Shown: positions 634-52,137 of the stretch, in pieces
Layout of the letters: every line of letters starts with the position of its first letter
Position numbering within the stretch: position 1 is the stretch's first letter
DNA from: Moraxella sp. K1664
Lineage (GTDB): Bacteria > Pseudomonadota > Gammaproteobacteria > Pseudomonadales > Moraxellaceae
Assembly: GCF_039693965.1 (NCBI RefSeq)
Contig: NZ_CP155576.1
Span: 1,612,001 to 1,676,000 of the forward strand
DNA length: 64,000 nucleotides
Direction: 5' to 3'
Notes under the pieces: model-generated
Seen by the model: the letters and a program-made list of their open reading frames with translations, nothing else
The model's database searches: none
Told to the model about the DNA's origin: nothing
Program-made: the position numbers and the translations under genes

Positions 634-1515
634 TTGGCAGTGTCAAACTTGCCAAGAAGTGTGTTTTATTACCACATTCGTCAAAGTACAAAGCCTGACA
701 AAGACCTTGACTTAAAAGAACACATTAACCACATCTACCACCAACACAAGGGCAGGTATGGTTATCGTAGAATCACATCAGAGCTTAACAATCAGCTTGC
801 CCAAAAAGGCATGGTCATTAATCATAAACGAGTGCAACGACTGATGGCTAAACTTGGACTCAAAGCATTGGTTCGTCGTCAACGTAAGTTTAATACTTAC
901 AAAGGCACAATGGGCAAAGATACCATTCAGGACAATATACTCAAAAGAGACTTTAAAGCAGACAAACCCAATCAAAAGTGGGCAACAGACATCACAGAGT
1001 TTAAAGTACAAGACAAGGCAAATGATGGCAGTGTCATTCAAAGAAAACTCTACCTATCGCCCATCATCGACTTGTTTAATGGTGAGATTGTCAGTTATAC
1101 GATGAAGGACAGACCAACGTATGAGTTGGTCAAAGAGATGTTAAATGATGCCCTATCCAAGCTAAGCCAAGAAAAGATGGATGACAAACCCATCATTCAT
1201 TCAGACCAAGGCTGGCACTATCAAATGCACCAGTATCAACAAACCCTAAAAGAACAAGGCTTAACCCAAAGCATGTCAAGAAAAGGCAATTGTTTGGATA
1301 ATGCTGTGATAGAGAGCTTCTTTGGTACGCTAAAACAAGAGATATTTTATGAGACAACCACATTTACATCAACAGATGAACTTAAACAAGTGATTGATGA
1401 GTACATACACTACTACAATCATGATAGAATAAAGAGCAAATTAAAAGGACTAAGTCCTGTTAAGTACAGAAACTTAGTCCAATTAGGGTTAATACAACCA
1501 CTTGCAACAACCTAA
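634..1515 (+). CDS. IS3-family transposase OrfB (DDE integrase domain), expressed as OrfAB fusion
   Basis: Catalytic half of the transposase, with an rve-type integrase core. The DD(35)E triad is visible as D119 (WATDITEF), D191 (HSDQGWHY) and E227 (IESFFGTLK), numbered from the TTG at 634. The 634 codon is only the first possible start: the frame is open back to 535, directly after the slippery sequence A AAA AAG at 529-535, so the natural product is probably an OrfA-OrfB fusion made by -1 frameshifting. The residues just before 634 also read like OrfB sequence. All catalytic residues are present, so the copy looks active. The protein is identical to that of the copy at 37114-37995. Confidence 0.93.
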   Translation: MAVSNLPRSVFYYHIRQSTKPDKDLDLKEHINHIYHQHKGRYGYRRITSELNNQLAQKGMVINHKRVQRLMAKLGLKALVRRQRKFNTYKGTMGKDTIQDNILKRDFKADKPNQKWATDITEFKVQDKANDGSVIQRKLYLSPIIDLFNGEIVSYTMKDRPTYELVKEMLNDALSKLSQEKMDDKPIIHSDQGWHYQMHQYQQTLKEQGLTQSMSRKGNCLDNAVIESFFGTLKQEIFYETTTFTSTDELKQVIDEYIHYYNHDRIKSKLKGLSPVKYRNLVQLGLIQPLATT

Positions 1516-2966: not shown

Positions 2967-3085
2967 ACTTCCTGCAAAACTAGTTTTCCGTTCGCCCTGA
3001 GCCTGTCGAAGGGTAGCGGAAAACCGTTATGGTTCGACAAGCTCACCACGAACGGTTTTCTTTAATTCAGGGTTTTGCAGGAAGT
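2967..3085. repeat. 119-bp inverted-repeat element carrying REP-like palindromes (intact, unoccupied IS110 target)
   Basis: The ends are perfect 14-bp inverted repeats, ACTTCCTGCAAAAC and GTTTTGCAGGAAGT. Inside are REP-like segments, including CGTTCGCCCTGAGCCTGTCG (2990-3009) and GGTTCGACAAGCTCACCACG. A second copy at 32981-34343 is split by an IS110-family element exactly within the CGTTCGCCCT/GAGC motif. The structure suggests a small non-autonomous (MITE-like) element or a composite intergenic repeat. It contains no gene. Confidence 0.8.
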
Positions 3086-3165
3086 CTAATATGCAAACGT
3101 AGGGACGTGCTGAGCACTTCCTTTTCGTTGGATGGATATGAATGACAAACAAAAAAGCCGAAACA

Positions 3166-29113: not shown

Positions 29114-30268
29114 TCAAGGCTCATCTGATGTATCGGGCAAGCAAATGGGGGTGCTGATACAGCTTGGGGTGTCCACTTTTGTTTTGTCTAAGGCGGTCAT
29201 GAGTTGTAAGGTTGCCCGCTCCCAATCTTCAATTTGACTTGGGTCATCAAGGTGGCGTTCATCAAGATTGGCAGGATTTATGGGGTATTTGTCGTCTCGC
29301 TCATCTGTTGGTGTGGCGATAAATGCTAGAAAGGCTTGGGCTTTTTTGCCAAGTTCGCTGTTATGTTTGGCAAGTTTGACAAAGCTCGCTTCATCTGTGA
29401 ATGTCTCATCATTTTCATTGATGTAGGTGATAAATGCGGTTTTATCATCATTTAGCCAACGTGTATTATCTGAATCAAAAAATAACAAATATTCATAAAA
29501 TAATGACAACCGTTTGGCATCATCAATAAAGACACTCTGCGGATACGTCTTTTGATAATCTTGCCAAAATAACGCCCGCTCGATAAGCTCATCTAATGAA
29601 ATGCTAAGACCTGCATCACACCACAGTGGCTCTTGGTTGTCGCTGGCAAGTCGCTCAATCATGACCGCTTGGCCTTTTGGTAAATGGGGCGTAAACAGCT
29701 TGGCAAATGCTTGATAATCATTGACGAAGTCAAATTCCCCTTCGCAGTAGTCTGCTATTTTTAGCTTGTTTTGTTTGACCTGCTTGATGAGATGTTGGGC
29801 TTTTGGGGGTAATTTTACGATGTTGGACTCATTGTACTTTTTGTTATAATGAATGTCGTACATGACCTGATTTAACTGGTCAAATTCTGCCTCATCTAGC
29901 AAAAATTTATCGCCTTGCCAAAATGACAAAAAACGCTGATAAGCAAGCTGATATTGTGTCGCCCACTTGATTTGGGTGGTGTTGTCGGCAGTCGGCAGGC
30001 AATGATTGAGTAGTTTATCCGCCTTATCAAAGTCATCTATTTGGCTATTGATGTCAATGGCGGTTAGTGTGCTGGTAACGGCTTGGCAATCAATCGCTTG
30101 GGCGTTGGCACTTTGAGCGACAGGTGTGGGCGATGTGGGGGCAACGTCCACAAAAGTCTGCTCTGCTTGGCGTGGTGTGGCATCAGTAGCAAGTGAGCTG
30201 TTGGGCTTGTTGTCGCAAGCGGTCAAGGATGACAGAGCGATTGCGATGATTATTAATGGGTATTTCAT
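29114..30268 (-). CDS. Hypothetical lipoprotein
   Basis: 384 residues with a lipoprotein signal peptide (YPLIIIAIALSSLTACDN; lipobox LTAC, Cys 18). The residue after the Cys is Asp, which in enteric bacteria favours inner-membrane retention; that rule may not hold here. The mature part is mainly helical and acidic, with an initial Ser/Thr/Pro-rich stretch. I do not recognise a family. It begins 3 bp downstream of the lipB stop codon on the same strand, so the two are probably co-transcribed, although no functional link to lipoylation is evident. Confidence 0.7.
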   Translation of the reverse strand: MKYPLIIIAIALSSLTACDNKPNSSLATDATPRQAEQTFVDVAPTSPTPVAQSANAQAIDCQAVTSTLTAIDINSQIDDFDKADKLLNHCLPTADNTTQIKWATQYQLAYQRFLSFWQGDKFLLDEAEFDQLNQVMYDIHYNKKYNESNIVKLPPKAQHLIKQVKQNKLKIADYCEGEFDFVNDYQAFAKLFTPHLPKGQAVMIERLASDNQEPLWCDAGLSISLDELIERALFWQDYQKTYPQSVFIDDAKRLSLFYEYLLFFDSDNTRWLNDDKTAFITYINENDETFTDEASFVKLAKHNSELGKKAQAFLAFIATPTDERDDKYPINPANLDERHLDDPSQIEDWERATLQLMTALDKTKVDTPSCISTPICLPDTSDEP

Positions 30269-30271
30269 GGC

Positions 30272-31018
30272 TTATTCGCTGGGTATCGGGTTATTTATGG
30301 GTCTTAGGGCGAGTTGTCCACTGTGTCTTTTTTGAATATTACTGATAAATTTATGAATAAATTCGTGCGTTTGGCTATCATCAAATTTGCCAAATTGCGA
30401 TAGTTTTACCATTGCCATGCCCGCATAGCCACAAGGGTTAATGGCATTAAAGGCGGTCAAATCATTGACAAGGTTAATGGCAATGCCGTGATAGCTATGC
30501 CCTTGCTTGATTTTAAAGCCCAAAGACGCAATTTTGCCAAGCATATCGCCATTGGTATTATAAATATACACCCCAGGGGCATCACGGCGAGCCTTAGCGG
30601 TCAAATCGGGCGGTAGGTACTCGCCCACCACGTCTTCTATGGCTTGCTCGGCGTGGCTCACTAGGTCTCGCACGCCCATGCCAAGGCGGTGCAAATCCCA
30701 CAGCCAGTACACCACAAGTTGCCCCACGCCATGCCATGTTACCTGTCCGCCACGGTCGGTTTTGATGATTGGGGTGTCGGTCTTGTAGAGAATATGCTCT
30801 TCTTTGCCCGCTTGCCCTAGCGTATAAACGTCTTGATGCTCCACAATCCACAGCTCATCAGGGCAGGCTTGCCCGTTTTTTTTATCATCAATGCGACTCA
30901 AAATCCGAGCAAGCATATCATCATGCGTGGCGTTGTATTCGGCGTGGGGGTGGGTGCTTGTGTGCAAGTCGTCCCATTGCAAGGGGGTAAGGTTTAGGTG
31001 GGGTAGGTTTAGGGTCAT
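30272..31018 (-). CDS. lipB: Octanoyl-[ACP]:protein N-octanoyltransferase LipB
   Basis: LipB moves octanoate from acyl carrier protein to the lipoyl domains of 2-oxoacid dehydrogenases and GcvH; LipA then adds sulfur. 248 residues with the family motifs RGGQVTWHGVGQLVVYWL (about 89-106), KIASLGFKI (catalytic-type Lys 162) and NPCGYAGM with the acyl-accepting Cys 196. It is slightly long at the C-terminus. lipA is not adjacent. The divergent gene across about 110 bp is the TPP-regulated thiamine cluster. Confidence 0.95.
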   Translation of the reverse strand: MTLNLPHLNLTPLQWDDLHTSTHPHAEYNATHDDMLARILSRIDDKKNGQACPDELWIVEHQDVYTLGQAGKEEHILYKTDTPIIKTDRGGQVTWHGVGQLVVYWLWDLHRLGMGVRDLVSHAEQAIEDVVGEYLPPDLTAKARRDAPGVYIYNTNGDMLGKIASLGFKIKQGHSYHGIAINLVNDLTAFNAINPCGYAGMAMVKLSQFGKFDDSQTHEFIHKFISNIQKRHSGQLALRPINNPIPSE

Positions 31019-31096
31019 GGCTTTTAAATGGTTAAATAAGAGCTATTTTACGTCATTTTGTTAAAAATAAAAACCATTTTAACCATTTTTAACCGC

Positions 31097-31125
31097 TTGC
31101 ACACCCCTTACCCTTTTGTTATAAT
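31097..31125 (+). promoter_or_regulatory. Sigma-70 promoter of the thiamine operon
   Basis: TTGCAC (31097-31102), exactly 17 bp, then TATAAT (31120-31125). Transcription would begin near 31132, at the first base pair of the TPP riboswitch. Confidence 0.85.
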
Positions 31126-31131
31126 CCAACC

Positions 31132-31209
31132 TATCAATCGGGGTGCTATTTATGGCTGAGATGATACCCGTGAACCTGATACAGTTAAAACTGGCGTAGG
31201 AAATTGATA
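31132..31209 (+). promoter_or_regulatory. TPP riboswitch (THI element)
   Basis: The conserved THI-box core is visible: GGGGTGC, GCTGAGATGATACCC, GTGAACCTGATACAG and CTGGCGTAGGAA. P1 is formed by TATCAAT (31132-31138) and ATTGATA (31203-31209). It binds thiamine pyrophosphate. The expression platform downstream (31210-31276) has GGGTTTT able to pair with AAAACCC directly after the AAGGA ribosome-binding site of thiM, which suggests control of translation initiation. Confidence 0.95.
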
Positions 31210-31276
31210 AAAATTGACGAGCAACACACTTTTTGGTGTGGGTTTTGACTGTGCTTTTCTTAAAAAGGAAAAACCC

Positions 31277-32119
31277 ATGACCACAGTTACCAAAAACCCA
31301 TTCTCCCCAGACCAAATCCCCCTAGACTTAATCAACGAAGTCCGCAAGCAAAACCCCCTAATTCACAACATTACAAATCTGGTCTCCGCCAATTTTACCG
31401 CCAATGGACTGCTTGCTGTTGGTGCGTCCCCCATGATGGCAGAGTCGCCTTTGGAGATGGCAGAGCTTGCCAAAATCAGTAGTGCGGTTGTGCTAAATAT
31501 CGGCACGCCGTCCGACCCCAAAACGTCCGCCATGATTATCGCAGGGCAAACCGCCAACGCCCACGGCATTCCTGTGGTGCTAGACCCTGTGGCGGTGTCG
31601 GCAAGCACTTTACGCCAATCTACCATTCATCAGATTAGCCAAGTCGTGCAGTTTGATGCCATTCGTGGCAATGCAGGCGAGCTTGCGTTTTTGGCAGGGG
31701 CGAACTGGCAAGCCAAAGGCGTGGATGCTGGGCGTGGCGATGCGGATTTGGCGAGCATTTGCCAAGCGGTCGCCCAAAAGTACCGCACCATTGCCATTTT
31801 GACAGGCGAGATTGACTATATCTCAGACGGCACGCAGGTGGTTGCCCTTGCCAACGGTACGCCACTTCTGCCCAAGGTTACCGCCACAGGGTGCTTGCTA
31901 AGTGCCGTGGTTGGGGCATTTTTGGCGGTGGCAGGGCGTGAGCGGTATTTGGTGGGGGCGGTCAATGCCTGTGCCACATTTGCCATTGCAGGCGAGCTTG
32001 CTTGTGAAGGATTATTGCCAAGCCAAAGCGGTACGTTTATGTATCAATTTTTGGATAAATTGGGCGGTATTAGCCCTGATGAGATTGCCAATCGTGTCAA
32101 GTTTGTGGGGGGAGCATGA
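31277..32119 (+). CDS. thiM: Hydroxyethylthiazole kinase ThiM
   Basis: Salvage kinase that phosphorylates the thiazole moiety of thiamine. 280 residues from the ATG at 31277, preferred because AAGGA lies just upstream and within reach of the riboswitch platform. Visible family features are NPLIHNITNLVSANFTANGLLA near the N-terminus, GASPMM, NIGTPSD, DPVAVSAS and the anion-hole/catalytic segment VTATGCLLSAVVGAFLA with the conserved Cys. It overlaps thiD by 4 bp (ATGA). It is the first gene of the riboswitch-led cluster. Confidence 0.95.
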   Translation: MTTVTKNPFSPDQIPLDLINEVRKQNPLIHNITNLVSANFTANGLLAVGASPMMAESPLEMAELAKISSAVVLNIGTPSDPKTSAMIIAGQTANAHGIPVVLDPVAVSASTLRQSTIHQISQVVQFDAIRGNAGELAFLAGANWQAKGVDAGRGDADLASICQAVAQKYRTIAILTGEIDYISDGTQVVALANGTPLLPKVTATGCLLSAVVGAFLAVAGRERYLVGAVNACATFAIAGELACEGLLPSQSGTFMYQFLDKLGGISPDEIANRVKFVGGA

Positions 32120-32961
32120 ACCACGTCCACACGCACCCACGCACTCATCGCCCCGCCCAAGCCTTGACTATTGCAGGGTCGGACTCTGGCGGTGGGGCAG
32201 GCATTCAGGCGGATTTAAAGACCTTTACCATGCGACAAGTATTTGGTACAAGTGTACTGACCGCCACAACCGCCCAAAACACCCAAGGCGTATGGGGCAT
32301 TCATCATCTGCCGACCGACCACATTAGAGCCCAGCTTGTCGCCATTGGGGACGATTTTGCGATTGGGGCGTGCAAAATCGGTATGCTTGGCACGTCCGAC
32401 ATCATTGAGACGGTGGGGCAGTTTCTACAAAATCGTCCGTTTGGGCAAGTGGTGCTTGACCCTGTGATGATTGCCAAAGGCGGACAATCCTTGCTTGATG
32501 ACAACGCAAAAGACAGCCTAAAACGGCTCATTCCCCTAACCGACATCATCACGCCCAACCTACCAGAAGCCGAAGTGCTGACAGGCATGACGATAGTTTG
32601 TGATGATGATATAAGGAAAGCCCTACACGCCTTACAAGACATGGGGGCAAAGACGGTCATCATCAAAGGCGGACATAGCCAAAATTCCCAAAGTGCCATG
32701 TGCATAGATTATGTGCTTGATGAAACGGGCGATATTTGGCAAGTACAAAGCGAACGCACTAACAGCAAAAACACACACGGCACAGGGTGTACGTTCTCGG
32801 CGTGTATCACGGCAGAGCTTGCCAAAGGGGCGAGCGTGGCAGATGCCATTCATACCGCCAAACGCTTAATTGCTCAGGCGATTAGCACCGCCCCCAATAT
32901 CGGACACGGACATGGGGCGGTCAATCATTGGGCGTTTTGGGAAGGTGGGGTGGGTAATTAG
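32116..32961 (+). CDS. thiD: Hydroxymethylpyrimidine/phosphomethylpyrimidine kinase ThiD
   Basis: Phosphorylates HMP and HMP-P to the pyrophosphate used by ThiE. 281 residues, ribokinase-like fold: LTIAGSDSGGGAGIQADLKTF (in part, about 15-33), substrate-site Gln and Met residues, DPVMIAKGG, and the ATP/anion-hole motif NTHGTGCTFSACITAELA near 220. The first 12 residues, rich in His/Thr, are an unusual extension, and an internal start is possible. Translation is coupled to thiM. An IS110-family element lies 51 bp after the stop. Confidence 0.95.
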   Translation: MNHVHTHPRTHRPAQALTIAGSDSGGGAGIQADLKTFTMRQVFGTSVLTATTAQNTQGVWGIHHLPTDHIRAQLVAIGDDFAIGACKIGMLGTSDIIETVGQFLQNRPFGQVVLDPVMIAKGGQSLLDDNAKDSLKRLIPLTDIITPNLPEAEVLTGMTIVCDDDIRKALHALQDMGAKTVIIKGGHSQNSQSAMCIDYVLDETGDIWQVQSERTNSKNTHGTGCTFSACITAELAKGASVADAIHTAKRLIAQAISTAPNIGHGHGAVNHWAFWEGGVGN

Positions 32962-32980
32962 TTGGTAAATTTAATATTAA

Positions 32981-33012
32981 ACTTCCTATAAAACTGGTTT
33001 TCCGTTCGCCCT
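32981..33012. repeat. Left part of a REP-bearing repeat split by IS110 copy A
   Basis: ACTTCCTATAAAAC followed by CGTTCGCCCT matches the left 32 bp of the intact repeat at 2967-3085. The right part resumes at 34255. Confidence 0.85.
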
Positions 33013-33205
33013 TGTATCAACCCAACACCAAACCTAGATTATCTGCTAGAATGTTGTTGGGTTATACAAGCAAAGAGAACACGGGTTCGCCCTTAGTGTC
33101 TTAACACTGGTGCTCAGATGGTGTCCTTTGCTTGTCATCTTAACTCTGAATGGTATCTAAGTGCGTTTATTAAAACAGACACTGCATAAACAAGGCAAGA
33201 GACAG
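33013..33205 (+). ncRNA. Putative bridge RNA of IS110 copy A
   Basis: Noncoding left end, comparable in position and length with the IS621 bridge RNA. Three stem-loops can be drawn. The first is a leader hairpin (CAACCCAACA with TGTTGTTGGGTT). The second is a target loop closed by ACAAGCAAAG/CTTTGCTTGT, containing GTTCGCCCT (33085-33093, identical to the left target) and GCTCAG (33112-33117, complement of CTGAGC in the right target), with an AGTGT/ACACT apical stem. The third is a donor loop with ATGGTATCT (33150-33158, identical to the element's last nine bases) and a GTTTAT/ATAAAC stem followed by AAG; the resulting ACAAG is the complement of CTTGT at the left junction. Folding is by eye; transcript ends are unknown. 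Confidence 0.75.
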
Positions 33206-34189
33206 ATGATACACTATATTGGCATAGACATCAGCAAAGCAAAGTTTGATGTTGCATTTATAAACCCAAGCACAAATAAAGTAAAAACCAAGGTTTTTAA
33301 CAACAACAAAGCAGGCTTTGATTTACTGCTTGCTTGGTTAAAAACCAATGTCAGCAATCATCTTGATGAGCTACACATCATCCTAGAAGCAACAGGGGTT
33401 TATCATGAACACCTAAGTGAGTTTCTTGATGATAATAATATCAAGCAAAGCATTGTCAATCCTAACTATGTCCGCAAATTTGCAGACAGTTTGGGGGTAA
33501 TCCATAAAACTGATAAAAAAGACAGCATTATTTTATCAAGGTATGGTTATAGCCACAAGCCTGAGATTTGGATAGCACCTAGCATTGAAGCCAAACAGCT
33601 AAAAGCTCTATTGGCTCGCTTAGAAGCACTCAAAGAAGATTTGCAACGAGAGCAAAACCGACAAGAGTTGCTCTTATCACCCAATCTGCCCGATTTGGTT
33701 AAAGCATCCATGCAAACAGTCATCAGTGTCCTTCAAGAGGAAATTGCCAAACTCACCAAAGACATTGATGACTTTGTTGACAAACAACCAAGTTTAAAGC
33801 AAGACAAAACCTTACTTGAAACCATTGACGGTATTGGTTCTGTTATTGCCAAAGAAGTGGTATGCTTAATACATACCAAACAATTTAAAAAAGCCTCACA
33901 GATGGCTTCGTTTTTAGGCTTAATACCCAAACAAAGACAGTCAGGTGTCTTTAAGGGAGCAACCAAACTGTCCAAACAAGGGCAAGTCTCTTTGCGTGCT
34001 AAGCTGTATATGTCTGCAATGAGTGCCATTCGTTATAATAGCACCATTAAGGCATTTTATGAACGATTACAACAAAACGGTAAAACCAAAATGCAAGCCT
34101 TATGTGCTTGTATGCGTAAATTGGTACATATCTGTTTTGGTGTTATCAAAACCCAAACATCCTTTGAGCAACAAGTATCTTTAAGTTAG
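33206..34189 (+). CDS. IS110-family (Piv-like) DEDD recombinase
   Basis: 327 residues from the ATG at 33206. This start is preferred over an upstream GTG at 33161 because the family begins just before YIGIDISK and because the upstream DNA looks like structured RNA. The RuvC-like N-terminal domain has a DEDD set: D8 (IGID), E61 (ILEATG), D103 and D106 (KTDKKDS). The C-terminal Transposase_20 domain has FLGLIPKQRQSGVFKG with the presumed catalytic Ser 246. A coiled-coil linker (about 125-185) joins them. The family includes the Moraxella pilin invertase Piv, but no pilin gene is adjacent here. It differs from copy B at least at I121V and I123V. Confidence 0.93.
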   Translation: MIHYIGIDISKAKFDVAFINPSTNKVKTKVFNNNKAGFDLLLAWLKTNVSNHLDELHIILEATGVYHEHLSEFLDDNNIKQSIVNPNYVRKFADSLGVIHKTDKKDSIILSRYGYSHKPEIWIAPSIEAKQLKALLARLEALKEDLQREQNRQELLLSPNLPDLVKASMQTVISVLQEEIAKLTKDIDDFVDKQPSLKQDKTLLETIDGIGSVIAKEVVCLIHTKQFKKASQMASFLGLIPKQRQSGVFKGATKLSKQGQVSLRAKLYMSAMSAIRYNSTIKAFYERLQQNGKTKMQALCACMRKLVHICFGVIKTQTSFEQQVSLS

Positions 34190-34226
34190 TTTGTAAGATA
34201 CTAGATACCAGATACTTAAAAAACCA

Positions 34227-34254
34227 TTGACTTAGGTGGGGTATCATGGTATCT
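34227..34254 (+). promoter_or_regulatory. Outward half-promoter at the right end of IS110 copy A
   Basis: TTGACT (34227-34232), 17 bp, then TATCT ending at the element border. If the ends join in a circle, the first base of the left end completes TATCTT, giving a promoter pointing into the putative bridge RNA. In the inserted state the sixth base is G. Confidence 0.55.
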
Positions 34255-34343
34255 GAGCTTGTCGAAGGGTATAAGGAAAACCGTTATGGTTCGACTTAGC
34301 TCACCACGAACGGTTTTCTTTAATTCAGAGTTTTGCAGGAAGT
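34255..34343. repeat. Right part of the REP-bearing repeat split by IS110 copy A
   Basis: It begins GAGCTTGTCGAAGGG and ends GTTTTGCAGGAAGT, matching the right 87 bp or so of the repeat at 2967-3085. Confidence 0.85.
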
Positions 34344-34396
34344 CCATTGCTGAATTAAAATGCCTTTTAAAATATTTTTAAAATTTGGACGTGTAG

Positions 34397-34416
34397 GGGC
34401 GAATTGCAATTCACCC
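34397..34416. repeat. 20-bp intergenic palindrome
   Basis: GGGCGAATTGCAATTCACCC, one base from the perfect palindrome at 55012-55031. It is part of the approximately 190-bp gene-free stretch before thiE. Confidence 0.7.
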
Positions 34417-34533
34417 AAAAATCAACACTTTATCAAAGGGCGAAGGTGATTTGTCCCTACATTTTTTACCTTGATTGTCATTTGTATTTTAAAAATTTTT
34501 AAGTTTTTATTAAAAATCCCAAAAGGAACCCCC

Positions 34534-35193
34534 ATGTTTGATAAATCAACCCTATCCGTCTATTTTGTCGCAGGCACACAAGACTGCACGCACCGAGACG
34601 AACCCACGCCAGAGCAGAGACTGCTTGCGGTGTTGGAGAATGCCTTGCAAGCAGGGATTACTTGCTATCAATTTCGTGAAAAAGGCGACAACGCCCTAAC
34701 TTGCCCTGACAAGATTAAAAAGCTCGCCCTAGATTGCCAAGCGTTATGCCGTCAATATGGCGTGCCGTTTGTGATTAACAATGATGTTCATTTGTGCCTT
34801 GACATTGGGGCGGACGGCGTTCATGTGGGGCAGGCGGACATGGATATTTTTGACGTGGCAAGGCTGTGTCGTGGGCGTGCATTTGTGGGTTTGTCGCACA
34901 GCTCGCTTGATGAGATAAGGGTTAGTGTGGGGCATGATTTGGCGGATTATTTGGCGATTGGGGCGGTGTTTGACACACGCTCAAAGGCGGACGCTGGGTG
35001 TGCGGTGGGCGTGGATATGGTGGGGCAGGTGCGAGCGATGATTGGCAAGCGTCCGCTTGTTGCCATTGGTGGGATTGACACCACAAACGCAAGCCTTGTG
35101 CGTGCCAATGGGGCGGACGGTGTGGCGTGCGTGTCGGTGATTGCCCGTGCGGACGATATGGGGGCAGTGGTGGGGGCGTTAAAGGGGGCGTAA
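34534..35193 (+). CDS. thiE: Thiamine-phosphate synthase ThiE
   Basis: Couples HMP-PP with thiazole phosphate to give thiamine monophosphate. 219 residues from the ATG at 34534, which has AAAGGA nine bases upstream. TIM-barrel motifs: GITCYQFREKG (about 41-51), VPFVINNDVHLCLDIGADGVHVGQ (in part, about 75-98), GLSHSSLDEI, DYLAIGAVFDTRSK and VAIGGIDTTNA. It completes the salvage set thiM-thiD-thiE, but the IS110 element and repeats separate it by 1.57 kb from thiD, so it may have lost transcription from the riboswitch-controlled promoter. Confidence 0.95.
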   Translation: MFDKSTLSVYFVAGTQDCTHRDEPTPEQRLLAVLENALQAGITCYQFREKGDNALTCPDKIKKLALDCQALCRQYGVPFVINNDVHLCLDIGADGVHVGQADMDIFDVARLCRGRAFVGLSHSSLDEIRVSVGHDLADYLAIGAVFDTRSKADAGCAVGVDMVGQVRAMIGKRPLVAIGGIDTTNASLVRANGADGVACVSVIARADDMGAVVGALKGA

Positions 35194-35269
35194 TAAATCG
35201 TATGGCGTTTGTCATTGCAAATTGGGGCGTATTGCTTTACAATAAAACAAATAACCATAAGGGGGCTAT

Positions 35270-35545
35270 ATGACCACAACCAATTTAAATATCCGCATTG
35301 ATGACGAACTCAAAGTTCAAGCCACAAAAGTGCTGGCAAGTTATGGCTTGTCGCCCACACAAGCGATTAAACTGTTTTTTCATCAGGTGGTTAGCACCAA
35401 TCAAGTGCCTGTGTCTTTTGATTATCAAGCCAGAACGCCCAACGCCAAAACCTTGCAAGCGATTGATGAGCTAGAAAATGGCGGTGGTACGCTTTATGAT
35501 GATTTGGACAGTTTGCTTGCAGAGCTAGATAATGTTAAGCGTTAA
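35270..35545 (+). CDS. RelB/DinJ-family antitoxin
   Basis: 91 residues. The N-terminal ribbon-helix-helix TNLNIRIDDELKVQATKVLASYGLSPTQAI (in part, about 3-32) is typical of RelB/DinJ antitoxins, and the acidic C-terminal half (DELENGGGTLYDDLDSLLAEL) would wrap the toxin. Its last codons overlap the start of a YafQ-like toxin gene, the classic type II arrangement. The toxin reading frame is broken (35532-35786), so the antitoxin is probably an orphan that may still repress its own promoter. Confidence 0.9.
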   Translation: MTTTNLNIRIDDELKVQATKVLASYGLSPTQAIKLFFHQVVSTNQVPVSFDYQARTPNAKTLQAIDELENGGGTLYDDLDSLLAELDNVKR

Positions 35546-35786
35546 AACCAGTAAGGATTTTGATAGATTTAAGAAAACAAAAACTCACCGCCGAGCTTTT
35601 GGAAGTGTTAAGCTGTCTATATCGTGGCGAGTCGTTGCCCGCCAAATATAAAGACCTGCGTTACATGGCGACAAAAAGGGTTGGCGTGATTGTCATGTAC
35701 AAAATGATTTGGTGCTGATTTACAAAATTGAAGATGATATTTTGTATTTGGCAAGGTTAAATACCCATAGCGAAGTCTTTGGCTAG
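35532..35786 (+). pseudogene. YafQ/RelE-family mRNA interferase toxin, two frameshifts
   Basis: The start ATG overlaps the antitoxin end. Frame 1 reads MLSVKTSKDFDRFKKTK. From about 35584 the homologous reading continues in frame +1 (LTAELLEVLSCLYRGESLP, AKYKDLRY). From about 35667 it returns to frame 1 ([39 protein letters not shown]) to the TAG at 35784-35786. Joined, these resemble a complete YafQ toxin of about 85 residues. As written, frame 1 stops after 39 codons, so no active RNase is expected. The changes could also be sequencing errors, but two in one short gene make real decay more likely. Confidence 0.85.
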
Positions 35787-35853
35787 CCACATAATTTTCC
35801 CCCATTTCCCCAAAAATTTGCTATCATACCCCAAACTTCTTTTTGGAAAAATC

Positions 35854-37065
35854 ATGACCCACACGCCAATCATCACATCATTATTGGATAATGACTTATA
35901 CAAATTTACCATGCTCCAAGCCATGCTTCACCAATTCCCCCAAACGCATGGCGTGTACCGCTTTCGTTGTCGCAACAACGACAAATTGGCGTTCCCCTTA
36001 GGCGAGATTAAGGACGATTTGGAGCATCAGCTTGACCTGCTTTGCACTTTAAAATTTAAGCAAGATGAACTGGATTATTTGAGAAATTTGCGGTTTATTA
36101 AGCCTGATTTTGTGGATTATTTAGAATTATTTGCCTTAAAACGCCGATTTATCAAGGTGTGGACGGACGATGAAAACCGCCTAAACATTGAGATTGAAGG
36201 GGCGATGATTCAGGCAATGTTTTTTGAAATTTTTGTGTTATCCATTGTCAATCAGCTCTATTACGAACGCCTAAATGACCCCAACGCCTTGACAGACGGG
36301 CAAAAACGCCTTGATGAAAAGGTGCAAATTTTAAAACATTATGAAATGCTAGAACGCTCAGACGTACACAATCCTGCCTTTGCCGTGGCGGATTTTGGTA
36401 CACGTCGCCGTTATAGCCGAGACTGGCATTATCATGTGGTGGACACGCTCTCTCAGGCATCGCCCAGTATTTTTCGGGGGACATCTAACGTCTATCTTGC
36501 CAAAGAGCTGGGTTTGACTCCGATTGGCACCATGGCTCATGAGTTTATGCAAGCCTTTCAAGCCTTAGACGTGCGTTTGCGTGATAGCCAAAAGGCGGCG
36601 TTGGAGGCGTGGGTGCGTGAATATCGGGGCGATTTGGGCATTGCCTTGACGGACGTTGTGGGTATGGACGCATTTTTAAGAGATTTTGATTTGTATTTTG
36701 CCAAGCTCTTTGACGGACTTCGCCACGACTCAGGCGACCCGTACGAGTGGGGCGACAAGGCGATTGCTCATTATGAGAAGCTACGCATTGACCCCAAAAC
36801 CAAAAGCCTGACGTTTAGCGACGGCTTGACGCTCCAAAAGGCGTGGGATTTGCATGAATATTTTAAAACCCGTATCAAAACAGGCTTTGGTATCGGCACC
36901 AATCTCACCAACGACATGGGGTTAACCCAGCTTAATATCGTGCTAAAACTTGTGGAATGTAACGGGCAACCTGTCGCCAAACTCTCCGACAGCCCTGGTA
37001 AGACGATGATTGATGATGATACGTATTTGGCGTATTTAAAGCAGGTGTTTGAGGTAAAAGAGTGA
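35854..37065 (+). CDS. pncB: Nicotinate phosphoribosyltransferase PncB
   Basis: Makes nicotinate mononucleotide from nicotinate and PRPP in the Preiss-Handler NAD salvage route. 403 residues from the ATG at 35854; an upstream alternative start would run into the toxin pseudogene. Family features include [21 protein letters not shown] near the N-terminus, [16 protein letters not shown] with the site of the autophosphorylated His, [22 protein letters not shown] (in part) and [13 protein letters not shown] in the phosphoribosyl-binding region. Length fits the bacterial enzyme. The IS3 copy B begins 12 bp after the stop, so the gene is intact. Confidence 0.95.
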
Positions 37066-37113
37066 TAAAAGGGGTGTGAACCGACCCCCAAATCTTAGAC
37101 ATAAGATTAAAGG

Positions 37114-37995
37114 TTAGGTTGTTGCAAGTGGTTGTATTAACCCTAATTGGACTAAGTTTCTGTACTTAACAGGACTTAGTCCTTTTAATTTGCTCTTTAT
37201 TCTATCATGATTGTAGTAGTGTATGTACTCATCAATCACTTGTTTAAGTTCATCTGTTGATGTAAATGTGGTTGTCTCATAAAATATCTCTTGTTTTAGC
37301 GTACCAAAGAAGCTCTCTATCACAGCATTATCCAAACAATTGCCTTTTCTTGACATGCTTTGGGTTAAGCCTTGTTCTTTTAGGGTTTGTTGATACTGGT
37401 GCATTTGATAGTGCCAGCCTTGGTCTGAATGAATGATGGGTTTGTCATCCATCTTTTCTTGGCTTAGCTTGGATAGGGCATCATTTAACATCTCTTTGAC
37501 CAACTCATACGTTGGTCTGTCCTTCATCGTATAACTGACAATCTCACCATTAAACAAGTCGATGATGGGCGATAGGTAGAGTTTTCTTTGAATGACACTG
37601 CCATCATTTGCCTTGTCTTGTACTTTAAACTCTGTGATGTCTGTTGCCCACTTTTGATTGGGTTTGTCTGCTTTAAAGTCTCTTTTGAGTATATTGTCCT
37701 GAATGGTATCTTTGCCCATTGTGCCTTTGTAAGTATTAAACTTACGTTGACGACGAACCAATGCTTTGAGTCCAAGTTTAGCCATCAGTCGTTGCACTCG
37801 TTTATGATTAATGACCATGCCTTTTTGGGCAAGCTGATTGTTAAGCTCTGATGTGATTCTACGATAACCATACCTGCCCTTGTGTTGGTGGTAGATGTGG
37901 TTAATGTGTTCTTTTAAGTCAAGGTCTTTGTCAGGCTTTGTACTTTGACGAATGTGGTAATAAAACACACTTCTTGGCAAGTTTGACACTGCCAA
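37114..37995 (-). CDS. IS3-family transposase OrfB (copy B)
   Basis: The 293-residue protein is identical to the OrfB of copy A, with the same DD(35)E triad (D119, D191, E227). The open frame extends upstream to the slippery sequence, so an OrfAB fusion is the likely active product. Confidence 0.93.
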   Translation of the reverse strand: MAVSNLPRSVFYYHIRQSTKPDKDLDLKEHINHIYHQHKGRYGYRRITSELNNQLAQKGMVINHKRVQRLMAKLGLKALVRRQRKFNTYKGTMGKDTIQDNILKRDFKADKPNQKWATDITEFKVQDKANDGSVIQRKLYLSPIIDLFNGEIVSYTMKDRPTYELVKEMLNDALSKLSQEKMDDKPIIHSDQGWHYQMHQYQQTLKEQGLTQSMSRKGNCLDNAVIESFFGTLKQEIFYETTTFTSTDELKQVIDEYIHYYNHDRIKSKLKGLSPVKYRNLVQLGLIQPLATT

Positions 37996-50725: not shown

Positions 50726-50960
50726 TGATGTTTTTCCATTGAAATTGAAATGAATATAAATTGGGTTTATGAGGTTTTTAATTAATGATGTTTTAGACCA
50801 TCATGTTACACTCTACAAAACGAAAAAGTGCTACGGTTTCCGTTCGTGGTGAGCTAAGTCAAACCATCATGGAAAACCACCCGCAGGCATAGCTCAGATA
50901 CCATGATACCCCACCTAAGTCAATGGTTTTTTAAGTATCTGGTATCTAGTATCTTACAAA

Positions 50961-51944
50961 CTAACTTAAAGATACTTGTTGCTCAAAGGATGTTTGGGTT
51001 TTGATAACACCAAAACAGATATGTACCAATTTACGCATACAAGCACATAAGGCTTGCATTTTGGTTTTACCGTTTTGTTGTAATCGTTCATAAAATGCCT
51101 TAATGGTGCTATTATAACGAATGGCACTCATTGCAGACATATACAGCTTAGCACGCAAAGAGACTTGCCCTTGTTTGGACAGTTTGGTTGCTCCCTTAAA
51201 GACACCTGACTGTCTTTGTTTGGGTATTAAGCCTAAAAACGAAGCCATCTGTGAGGCTTTTTTAAATTGTTTGGTATGTATTAAGCATACCACTTCTTTG
51301 GCAATAACAGAACCAATGCCGTCAATGGTTTCAAGTAAGGTTTTGTCTTGCTTTAAACTTGGTTGTTTGTCAACAAAGTCATCAATGTCTTTGGTGAGTT
51401 TGGCAATTTCCTCTTGAAGGACACTGATGACTGTTTGCATGGATGCTTTAACCAAATCGGGCAGATTGGGTGATAAGAGCAACTCTTGTCGGTTTTGCTC
51501 TCGTTGCAAATCTTCTTTGAGTGCTTCTAAGCGAGCCAATAGAGCTTTTAGCTGTTTGGCTTCAATGCTAGGTGCTACCCAAACCTCAGGCTTGTGGCTA
51601 TAACCATACCTTGATAAAATAATGCTGTCTTTTTTATCAGTTTTATGGATTACCCCCAAACTGTCTGCAAATTTGCGGACATAGTTAGGATTGACAATGC
51701 TTTGCTTGATATTATTATCATCAAGAAACTCACTTAGGTGTTCATGATAAACCCCTGTTGCTTCTAGGATGATGTGTAGCTCATCAAGATGATTGCTGAC
51801 ATTGGTTTTTAACCAAGCAAGCAGTAAATCAAAGCCTGCTTTGTTGTTGTTAAAAACCTTGGTTTTTACTTTATTTGTGCTTGGGTTTATAAATGCAACA
51901 TCAAACTTTGCTTTGCTGATGTCTATGCCAATATAGTGTATCAT
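50961..51944 (-). CDS. IS110-family (Piv-like) DEDD recombinase, copy B
   Basis: 327 residues, nearly identical to the protein at 33206-34189; the visible differences are V121 and V123 in place of Ile. D8, E61, D103, D106 and Ser 246 are all present, so both copies look competent. Confidence 0.93.
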   Translation of the reverse strand: MIHYIGIDISKAKFDVAFINPSTNKVKTKVFNNNKAGFDLLLAWLKTNVSNHLDELHIILEATGVYHEHLSEFLDDNNIKQSIVNPNYVRKFADSLGVIHKTDKKDSIILSRYGYSHKPEVWVAPSIEAKQLKALLARLEALKEDLQREQNRQELLLSPNLPDLVKASMQTVISVLQEEIAKLTKDIDDFVDKQPSLKQDKTLLETIDGIGSVIAKEVVCLIHTKQFKKASQMASFLGLIPKQRQSGVFKGATKLSKQGQVSLRAKLYMSAMSAIRYNSTIKAFYERLQQNGKTKMQALCACMRKLVHICFGVIKTQTSFEQQVSLS

Positions 51945-52137
51945 CTGTCTCTTGCCTTGTTTATGCAGTGTCTGTTTTAATAAACGCACTTAGATACCAT
52001 TCAGAGTTAAGATGACAAGCAAAGGACACCATCTGAGCACCAGTGTTAAGACACTAAGGGCGAACCCGTGTTCTCTTTGCTTGTATAACCCAACAACATT
52101 CTAGCAGATAATCTAGGTTTGGTGTTGGGTTGATACA
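51945..52137 (-). ncRNA. Putative bridge RNA of IS110 copy B
   Basis: As far as I can read, the sequence is the same as in copy A, including the guide segments GTTCGCCCT, GCTCAG and ATGGTATCT. The flanks of this insertion fit the same guides, giving an independent second match. Confidence 0.72.

What the first reader, a model, noticed from the sequence alone, without database searches (positions are those of the whole stretch)
33013..33205. IS110 element with a readable bridge RNA whose guides match its insertion site
The noncoding left end can be folded into a leader hairpin and two guide loops. In the first loop, GTTCGCCCT (33085-33093) equals the nine bases of the left target ending in the CT core (33004-33012), and GCTCAG (33112-33117) is the reverse complement of CTGAGC, the core plus right target. 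This is the polarity described for IS621 bridge RNAs, where the left guide pairs with the bottom strand and the right guide with the top strand, overlapping on CT. The guides lie inside the element, so the match to outside DNA is a real prediction rather than an effect of how I set the ends. To my knowledge a bridge RNA for this Moraxella element has not been described.
Basis: partly seen in the sequence, partly recalled or inferred. Interest (0 to 1): 0.93.

Follow-up and report, generated by a model that had tools for sequence, protein, structure and literature searches.

The report
RNA-guided jumping gene homing on repeats
This bacterial jumping gene carries, just ahead of its recombinase gene, the sequence of a predicted two-loop guide RNA of the known "bridge RNA" kind; all 34 near-identical copies in this genome sit at one motif that matches the guide (two of them with a one-letter difference), inside a dispersed repeat, so the RNA likely steers the element to those repeats.

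Summary
The element is 33013-34254 plus a CT core (1,244 bp). All four guides fit: left target 9/9, right target 6/6, left donor 9/9, right donor 7/7 with the two-base bulge reported for IS621. The genome holds 34 copies with an identical 193-nt left end; all 34 lie at CCGTTC[G/A]CCCT|GAGC (32 G, 2 A), with 34 distinct left flanks. Of 61 perfect sites 32 are filled; 26 sites matching only the left guide are empty. Across relatives guide and target differ together (54 distinct guides, the window's included: 8.0 of 9 letters versus 5.5 re-dealt, 0 of 5,000). Stems covary (23 of 28 pairs change on both sides), and a model built without this element finds it (108 bits). The recombinase is an IS621 relative. 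So: a new member of a known kind; no RNA was measured. The target is a paired palindromic (REP-like) repeat; IS621 too targets REPs. One extra: a second IS110 in this genome seems to have recombined at its own donor-guide DNA.

The parts
33004..33012 (+). left target GTTCGCC plus core CT (33011-33012)
   Evidence: sequence; same in 32 of 34 copies, GTTCACC in 2
33013..34254 (+). IS110-type element (right core CT 34253-34254)
   Evidence: 34 copies of equal length, ends found by matching this copy's ends
33019..33201 (+). predicted bridge RNA (start approximate, inferred from the junction promoter; end from the model)
   Evidence: models R1/R2 match 33063-33201; 5' leader hairpin
33085..33093 (+). 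left target guide
   Evidence: 9/9 equal to left target plus core
33095..33108 (+). hairpin between the two target guides (AGTGT/ACACT)
   Evidence: helix 3: 3 of 4 pairs change on both sides, 100% of cells paired
33112..33117 (+). right target guide
   Evidence: 6/6 reverse complement of CT+GAGC
33068..33133 (+). target-binding loop closed by 33068-33074/33127-33133 and 33079-33082/33121-33124
   Evidence: helices 1 and 2: 11 of 11 pairs have changes on both sides (89% of cells paired)
33150..33158 (+). left donor guide ATGGTATCT
   Evidence: 9/9 equal to the right end of the element 34246-34254
33186..33194 (+). right donor guide ATAAACAAG, two bases bulged
   Evidence: 7/7 pairs with CTTGTAT 33011-33017 in the register described for IS621
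33206..34189 (+). recombinase gene (DEDD plus serine), 327 aa from the ATG; the frame is also open from a GTG at 33161
   Evidence: PF01548 and PF02371; IS621 8wt6 E=2e-54
34227..34232 (+). -35-like TTGACT; 17 bases before TATCTT formed only when the two ends are joined
34255..34258 (+). right target GAGC
   Evidence: 34 of 34 copies
34255..34319 (+). remainder of the interrupted paired palindromic repeat (left part ends at 33012)
   Evidence: alignment of 10 unfilled repeats; an unfilled copy at about window 2967-3086
50896..52137 (-). second copy of the same element in the window

Best explanation
This is an IS110-group insertion sequence of the IS621 type whose left end encodes a predicted bridge RNA, and that RNA likely steers the element's recombinase to one arm of a dispersed palindromic repeat. 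Likely cycle: the element leaves as a circle; the joined ends form a promoter (inferred); the RNA is made; its first loop pairs with GTTCGCC-CT-GAGC in an empty repeat, its second loop with the element's own joined ends; the recombinase exchanges strands at the CT core (by analogy with IS621). Shown here: sequence matches, fixed target in 34 copies, guide-target co-change across relatives, stem covariation, homology of the recombinase. Not shown: transcription, binding, recombination.
For: 34 of 34 copies at the guide-matching site (2 with one mismatch) with 34 distinct 60-base left flanks. Filled versus all sites: perfect site 32 of 61; A for G 2 of 13; T for G 0 of 3; left match without GAGC 0 of 26, a number got by subtraction (p = 4e-7; G versus A p = 0.029). 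The partner arm GTTCGTGGTGAGC (45 of the 100 rows printed of 130 matches) holds none of the 34. Guide-target agreement in 54 distinct guides; right donor guide 7/7 in 48 of 57. Covariation; a model built without this element finds it; R1 finds all 34 copies. IS621 homology. The exact 13-base site occurs in 12 of the 21 other genomes of the genus, while only 2 of those 21 hold a relative of the recombinase at E <= 1e-60, at 54-56% identity: the repeats do not depend on this element.
Against: No RNA or recombination data. The target is a repeat, so part of the agreement is shared ancestry of the repeats: CC just left of the guide-matched bases is also fixed in 34 of 34, though the guide has GG there, and only 22 of the 34 right 60-base flanks are distinct. 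G versus A is weak (p = 0.029). The partner arm differs in the core as well as the guide, so it does not test the guide alone. No orthologous empty site was found: the one other genome with a long match to this thi region shows no such repeat there. Five of 54 guides match their target at 5 letters or fewer. Single-sequence fold only z -2.08. No Rfam family matches. Half of 52 junctions lack a good -35 box at the spacing tested.
Confidence: 0.93

Rival explanations
1. The recombinase protein itself reads the repeat or its hairpin; the guide-like letters in the left end are a relic or coincidence.
For: The target is palindromic and REP-like, and Tobes and Pareja (PMC1525189, passages) suggest that some transposases could recognise palindromic REPs as regulators recognise palindromic sites.
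Against: Guide and target change together across relatives; the stem-loops covary; IS621 needs the RNA in vitro (PMC11208160, section 7); near-identical sites lacking the full guide match are less filled or unfilled.
Confidence: 0.04
2. The 34 copies spread by duplication or recombination between repeats, so the shared site is one insertion copied many times.
For: Copies are nearly identical (13 distinct sequences, one left end) and only 22 of 34 right flanks of 60 bases are distinct; repeats could recombine.
Against: 34 distinct left flanks of 60 bases and both strands used; ten types of immediate flank; unfilled repeats remain.
Confidence: 0.03
3. The left end is a regulatory leader or antisense RNA for the recombinase, as small RNAs regulate ISPpu9, and guiding is secondary.
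For: [quoted passage not shown]
Against: Does not explain four guide matches in the IS621 register.
Confidence: 0.03

Closest known systems
IS621 bridge RNA and recombinase (PMC11208160; PMC11208158)
   Same: Left-end RNA, 5' stem-loop plus target and donor loops, CT core, polarity, two-base bulge in the right donor guide, junction promoter, REP-like targets; recombinase E=2e-54
   Different: Own guide sequences; right target guide matches core plus four bases (IS621's is called 4-bp; the counting may differ); target is a different repeat; the left donor guide ends in CT where 45 of 57 distinct left ends tabulated have CC (the IS621 letters were not looked up)
seekRNA of IS1111/IS110 elements (PMC11187229)
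   Same: Same kind of noncoding guide under another name; IS110 order of matches
   Different: The 12 of 42 passages that I saw name ISEc11, ISXne4 and ISEc21 and mention Moraxella only for the Piv invertase
REP-targeting IS110 elements ISPa11, ISPpu9, ISPpu10 (PMC1525189)
   Same: All copies of each associated with REPs (6/6, 7/7, 7/7)
   Different: 2006 study, no RNA guide in the passages seen; copy number here is 34

Membership tests
IS110 group with bridge RNA | Recombinase with PF01548 and PF02371, DEDD acids and conserved serine | tested here: met
   (D8, E61, D103, D106, S246 invariant in 7 sequences)
IS110 group with bridge RNA | Long left noncoding end, short right end | tested here: met
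   193 bases before the ATG, 65 after the stop; 148 if the GTG at 33161 were the start
IS110 group with bridge RNA | RNA with 5' stem-loop and two internal-loop hairpins | tested here: met
   predicted structure with covariation for both loop hairpins; the 5' stem-loop rests on the single-sequence fold
IS110 group with bridge RNA | Target guides pair with bottom-left and top-right strands across a CT core | tested here: met
IS110 group with bridge RNA | Donor guides pair with the element's own ends, right guide with a two-base bulge | tested here: met
IS110 group with bridge RNA | Promoter formed at the joined ends | tested here: inconclusive
   TTGACT-17-TATCTT here; 26 of 52 distinct junctions reach 4/6 at -35 versus 20% of shuffles; no transcript data
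IS110 group with bridge RNA | RNA expressed, bound by recombinase, needed for recombination | not testable with these tools
   bench work needed
IS1111 group | Guide RNA in the right end | tested here: not met
   guides lie in the left end; right noncoding end is 65 bases
IS1111 group | Subterminal inverted repeats of 7-17 bp | not tested
   no repeat search of the ends was run

The most novel reading that the evidence does not exclude
Guide-coding DNA is itself a recombination site: the DNA of a left donor guide is a copy of the donor end, and a bridge recombinase can use it as a donor. In this genome a second IS110 (L040) is split and inverted exactly at the CT of its own left donor guide, joined to a second guide-matching target. 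In most left ends tabulated that guide ends in CC, not the CT core (45 of 57), which would guard the element against attacking itself; elements with CT, including the one in this window, would lack that guard.
Probability: 0.22. Interest if true: 0.62.

Novelty: new member of a known kind. Interest (0 to 1): 0.42.

Why it matters
It is a natural specificity experiment: one guide, 34 insertions and 69 unfilled full or partial sites counted (43 with GAGC, 26 without) in one chromosome, which bears on which guide positions matter in nature; about half of the perfect sites are filled. It adds another dispersed repeat to those that a bridge RNA is predicted to home on, and a covariance model was made where Rfam 15 gave no match. 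If the self-recombination reading is right, it bears on how guide-carrying elements avoid cutting their own guide, which would matter for designing safe bridge editors.

Tried and rejected
Rfam: three matches in 30000-37500, a TPP riboswitch and two below threshold; none in this element. Single-protein scan of genome contigs found no relative; the alignment scan did. Plasmid DNA search of the element: no match. RAYT partner of the repeats: three PF01797 hits of 145 aa, two of them within about 2 kb of IS110 loci; I took them for IS200-type transposases, not RAYTs (inference). Orthologous empty site at thiD-thiE: the 92% identical stretch of G086 shows no such repeat in the 400 bases printed. 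Scars of self-recombination by the window's own element: none (0 of 43 matches to GAATGGTATCTNNGC have GAGC; 0 matches for the reciprocal junction with up to one mismatch). Scars in 348 family genomes, pattern with T at the core only: 10 genomes hit, one each; only L218 (= L040) has a bridge RNA before the hit; L213 gave a 6-bit match (E 3.5), the other eight none, and by the look of the flanks those nine are chance hits. The idea that the partner arm tests the guide alone was rejected because its core differs too. IS1111 membership rejected (see table).

Rows dropped: one search used 54 of the 80 loci (26 left out: repeated Pseudomonas BN417 copies, contig ends, no clear left end or donor-guide motif), 17 of the 20 relatives' loci (L076, L079, L087 left out), and the window; one of these 72 (L157) failed, leaving 71. 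One search used 69 of 71, collapsed to 54 guides. Left ends and donor guides were found by conserved motifs, so donor conservation there is partly by selection; the guide slot used was set; shuffles do not correct for relatedness. The genome-wide RNA model search scored 150 of 491 candidates.

Full report
Anatomy. The element runs 33013-34254 with a CT core on each side (33011-33012 and 34253-34254), 1,244 bp counted with the left core. Its recombinase, 327 aa from the ATG at 33206 (the frame is open from a GTG at 33161), has the two IS110 domains and matches the IS621 recombinase 8wt6 at E=2e-54 and ISCro4 9t56 at 3.7e-49. D8, E61, D103, D106 and S246 are invariant in seven aligned relatives; that these are the DEDD acids and the serine is my reading of the alignment and recall of IS621.

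Four guides. GTTCGCCCT (33085-33093) equals left target plus core; GCTCAG (33112-33117) is the reverse complement of core plus right target; ATGGTATCT (33150-33158) equals the element's right end; ATAAACAAG (33186-33194), with its third and fourth bases bulged, is complementary to core plus left end CTTGTAT. The IS621 structure paper describes two flipped-out bases (U159, U160) next to G161, which faces donor base 12 (passages of PMC11208158); by my count that is the same place. The first paper describes nine RNA bases pairing with seven donor bases (PMC11208160, section 7). In 48 of 57 distinct left ends the same seven letters result; 6 differ and 3 could not be read.

One genome, 34 insertions. 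The own genome holds 34 copies at 98-100% protein identity and eight other, lower-scoring matches to IS110 genes or gene pieces. All 34 have the same 193-nt left end, and all lie at CCGTTC[G/A]CCCT|GAGC: 32 with G, 2 with A. Their 60-base left flanks are all different; 22 of the right ones are. To the right, fixed letters end with GAGC, where the guide match ends (next comes T or C, then varied letters). To the left, two more bases (CC) are fixed although the guide has GG there, so repeat ancestry also contributes. Unfilled sites: 43 matches to TTCNCCCTGAGC (29 G, 11 A, 3 T), 29 of them the full GTTCGCCCTGAGC. So 32 of 61 perfect sites are filled, 2 of 13 with A, 0 of 3 with T. GTTCGCCCT occurs 121 times: 34 in the guides, 32 at filled sites, 29 at unfilled sites, leaving by subtraction 26 without GAGC, none filled (p = 4e-7; G versus A p = 0.029, G versus A or T p = 0.0045).

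The target. Ten unfilled copies align as a repeat whose core is two inverted palindromic units, CCCTGAGCTTGTCGAAGGG and TGGTGAGCTTGTCGAACCA, whose stems differ in compensating fashion (window copy at about 2967-3086). The 34 copies lie only in the CCCT unit, by eye at the stem-loop border. The exact site occurs in 13 of 22 genomes of the genus searched, the own one included, often only once or twice. This is a REP/BIME-like target; IS621 and ISPa11, ISPpu9 and ISPpu10 are reported in REPs (PMC11208160; PMC1525189, passages).

Relatives. Of 71 left ends tabulated, the window's included, 54 distinct guides match their own left target at 8.0 of 9 letters on average (sorted: 4 twice, 5 three times, 6 once, 7 four times, 8 twenty-one times, 9 twenty-three times), against 5.5 for re-dealt targets (maximum 6.04, 0 of 5,000); the best match lies in the same slot in 49 of 54. 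The two core letters are counted in both. Right guides: 46 rows, 4.57 of 6 against 3.82 (0 of 5,000). Of 13 rows whose right target is not CTAC, five fit 6/6 (CTTCGA, CTGCGT, CTGACC, CTCTTA and CTGAGC here), two 5, three 4, and L112, L171 and L172 fit poorly (3, 3 and 2). Of 50 rows with a right target, 36 begin CTAC, the reverse complement of GTAG, which I recall as a hallmark of REPs. An inverted copy of the left target lies nearby in 24 of 55 sites against 2.5 expected (maximum 9 in 1,000 shuffles), so many relatives also sit in palindromes; the window's own site was not scored as one by that test.

RNA structure. On 19 aligned left ends, 23 of 28 pairs show changes on both sides; 95.2% of cells pair, against 68.8% shuffled and 33-48% when slid. 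A model made from the 18 others finds this element at 108.3 bits, E=1.9e-24, and only its second copy besides. The model with it finds 34 copies plus one other IS110 in the genome (150 of 491 candidates scored), and 41 of 45 further loci given, seven of them under 50 bits. Rfam 15 has no family that matches here.

Expression. Joined ends give TTGACT-17-TATCTT; the integrated left end gives GCCCTT instead. This agrees with the promoter reported for the IS621 circle (section 5 of PMC11208160). Across 52 distinct junctions 26 have at least four of six -35 letters, against 20% of shuffles. No transcript data were available to me.

Self-recombination. The second IS110 type exists as an ordered copy (L039) and a split one (L040). 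L039 1165-1335 matches L040 844-1014 on the plus strand (98.8%), and L039 1334-2490 matches L040 2312-1156 on the minus strand (100% over 1,157 bp); the two pieces overlap by exactly the two letters CT of the left donor guide. One break joins the guide to CTACGTCC, the other joins a target AATTCGCCCCT to the bases after the guide; the last nine letters of that target equal the element's own left target guide. The simplest reading is a reciprocal, RNA-guided inversion that used the guide's DNA as donor. It is a single event; the recombinase gene is broken in both copies (255- and 93-aa frames); no second scar was found in 348 genomes with a pattern that asks for T at the core, and the window's element, whose guide also ends in CT, shows none, which speaks against a strong hazard. 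Left donor guides end CC in 45 of 57 distinct left ends, CT in 7, CA in 3 and TC in 2, while left target guides end CT in 41 of the 45 that could be placed. Whether that difference protects the element is a guess.

What is known. IS110 bridge RNAs and IS621 are published (PMC11208160: abstract, sections 5, 6, 7, 12, part 1 of 43, and passages; PMC11208158 and PMC11187229: passages; PMC1525189: abstract and passages). The first predicts bridge RNAs in 85.7% of IS110s. In the held library my searches listed, by title and abstract start, no paper on a bridge RNA of this element or on self-recombination at a donor guide; supplementary tables were not open to me, so the element may be among the thousands predicted there.

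Verdict. Real, well supported, known kind; scored 0.42 for the unusually clean natural experiment and the lead on guide self-recombination.

Noticed in passing
L040 (own genome C1:1283343-1284811) versus L039: A second IS110 is split and inverted exactly at the CT of its own left donor guide, joined to a second site that matches its target guide.
   Followed up: partly
57 distinct left ends: Left donor guides end CC in 45 of 57 although the donor core is CT; left target guides end CT in 41 of 45. The window element is one of 7 with CT.
   Followed up: partly
window 31129-31219 (+): TPP riboswitch, 69.2 bits, just before what look to me like thiM-thiD-thiE genes (by recall); the IS110 sits between the thiD-like and thiE-like genes.
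   Followed up: no
window 37701-37715 (+) and 914-928 (-): GAATGGTATCTTTGC occurs 43 times in the genome; one lies inside a frame at 37114-37995 (-) that looks IS3-like to me, which suggests a very abundant second insertion sequence.
   Followed up: no
L152 (MAG filed as Deltaproteobacteria): A distant relative with another guide has entered the same class of repeat (CCCTTCGACAGGCTCAGGG) at another point, right guide 6/6.
   Followed up: no
L081 and eight other copies in G052; L074/L082 in G067; L039: Each of these IS110 types has its own guide and sits in its own sequence (AACCCAACCTAC in most of nine, GCACCCTACGC or near it, AATTCGCCCCTAC), several of them palindromic.
   Followed up: partly
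L083 (G135): The left target fits the guide only with an extra base (TATAAC-T-CT against TATAACCT), a possible bulge-tolerant insertion.
   Followed up: no
L035 and L036-L038 (own genome): Two further IS110 types (38% and 30% identical recombinases) not matched by the RNA model.
   Followed up: no
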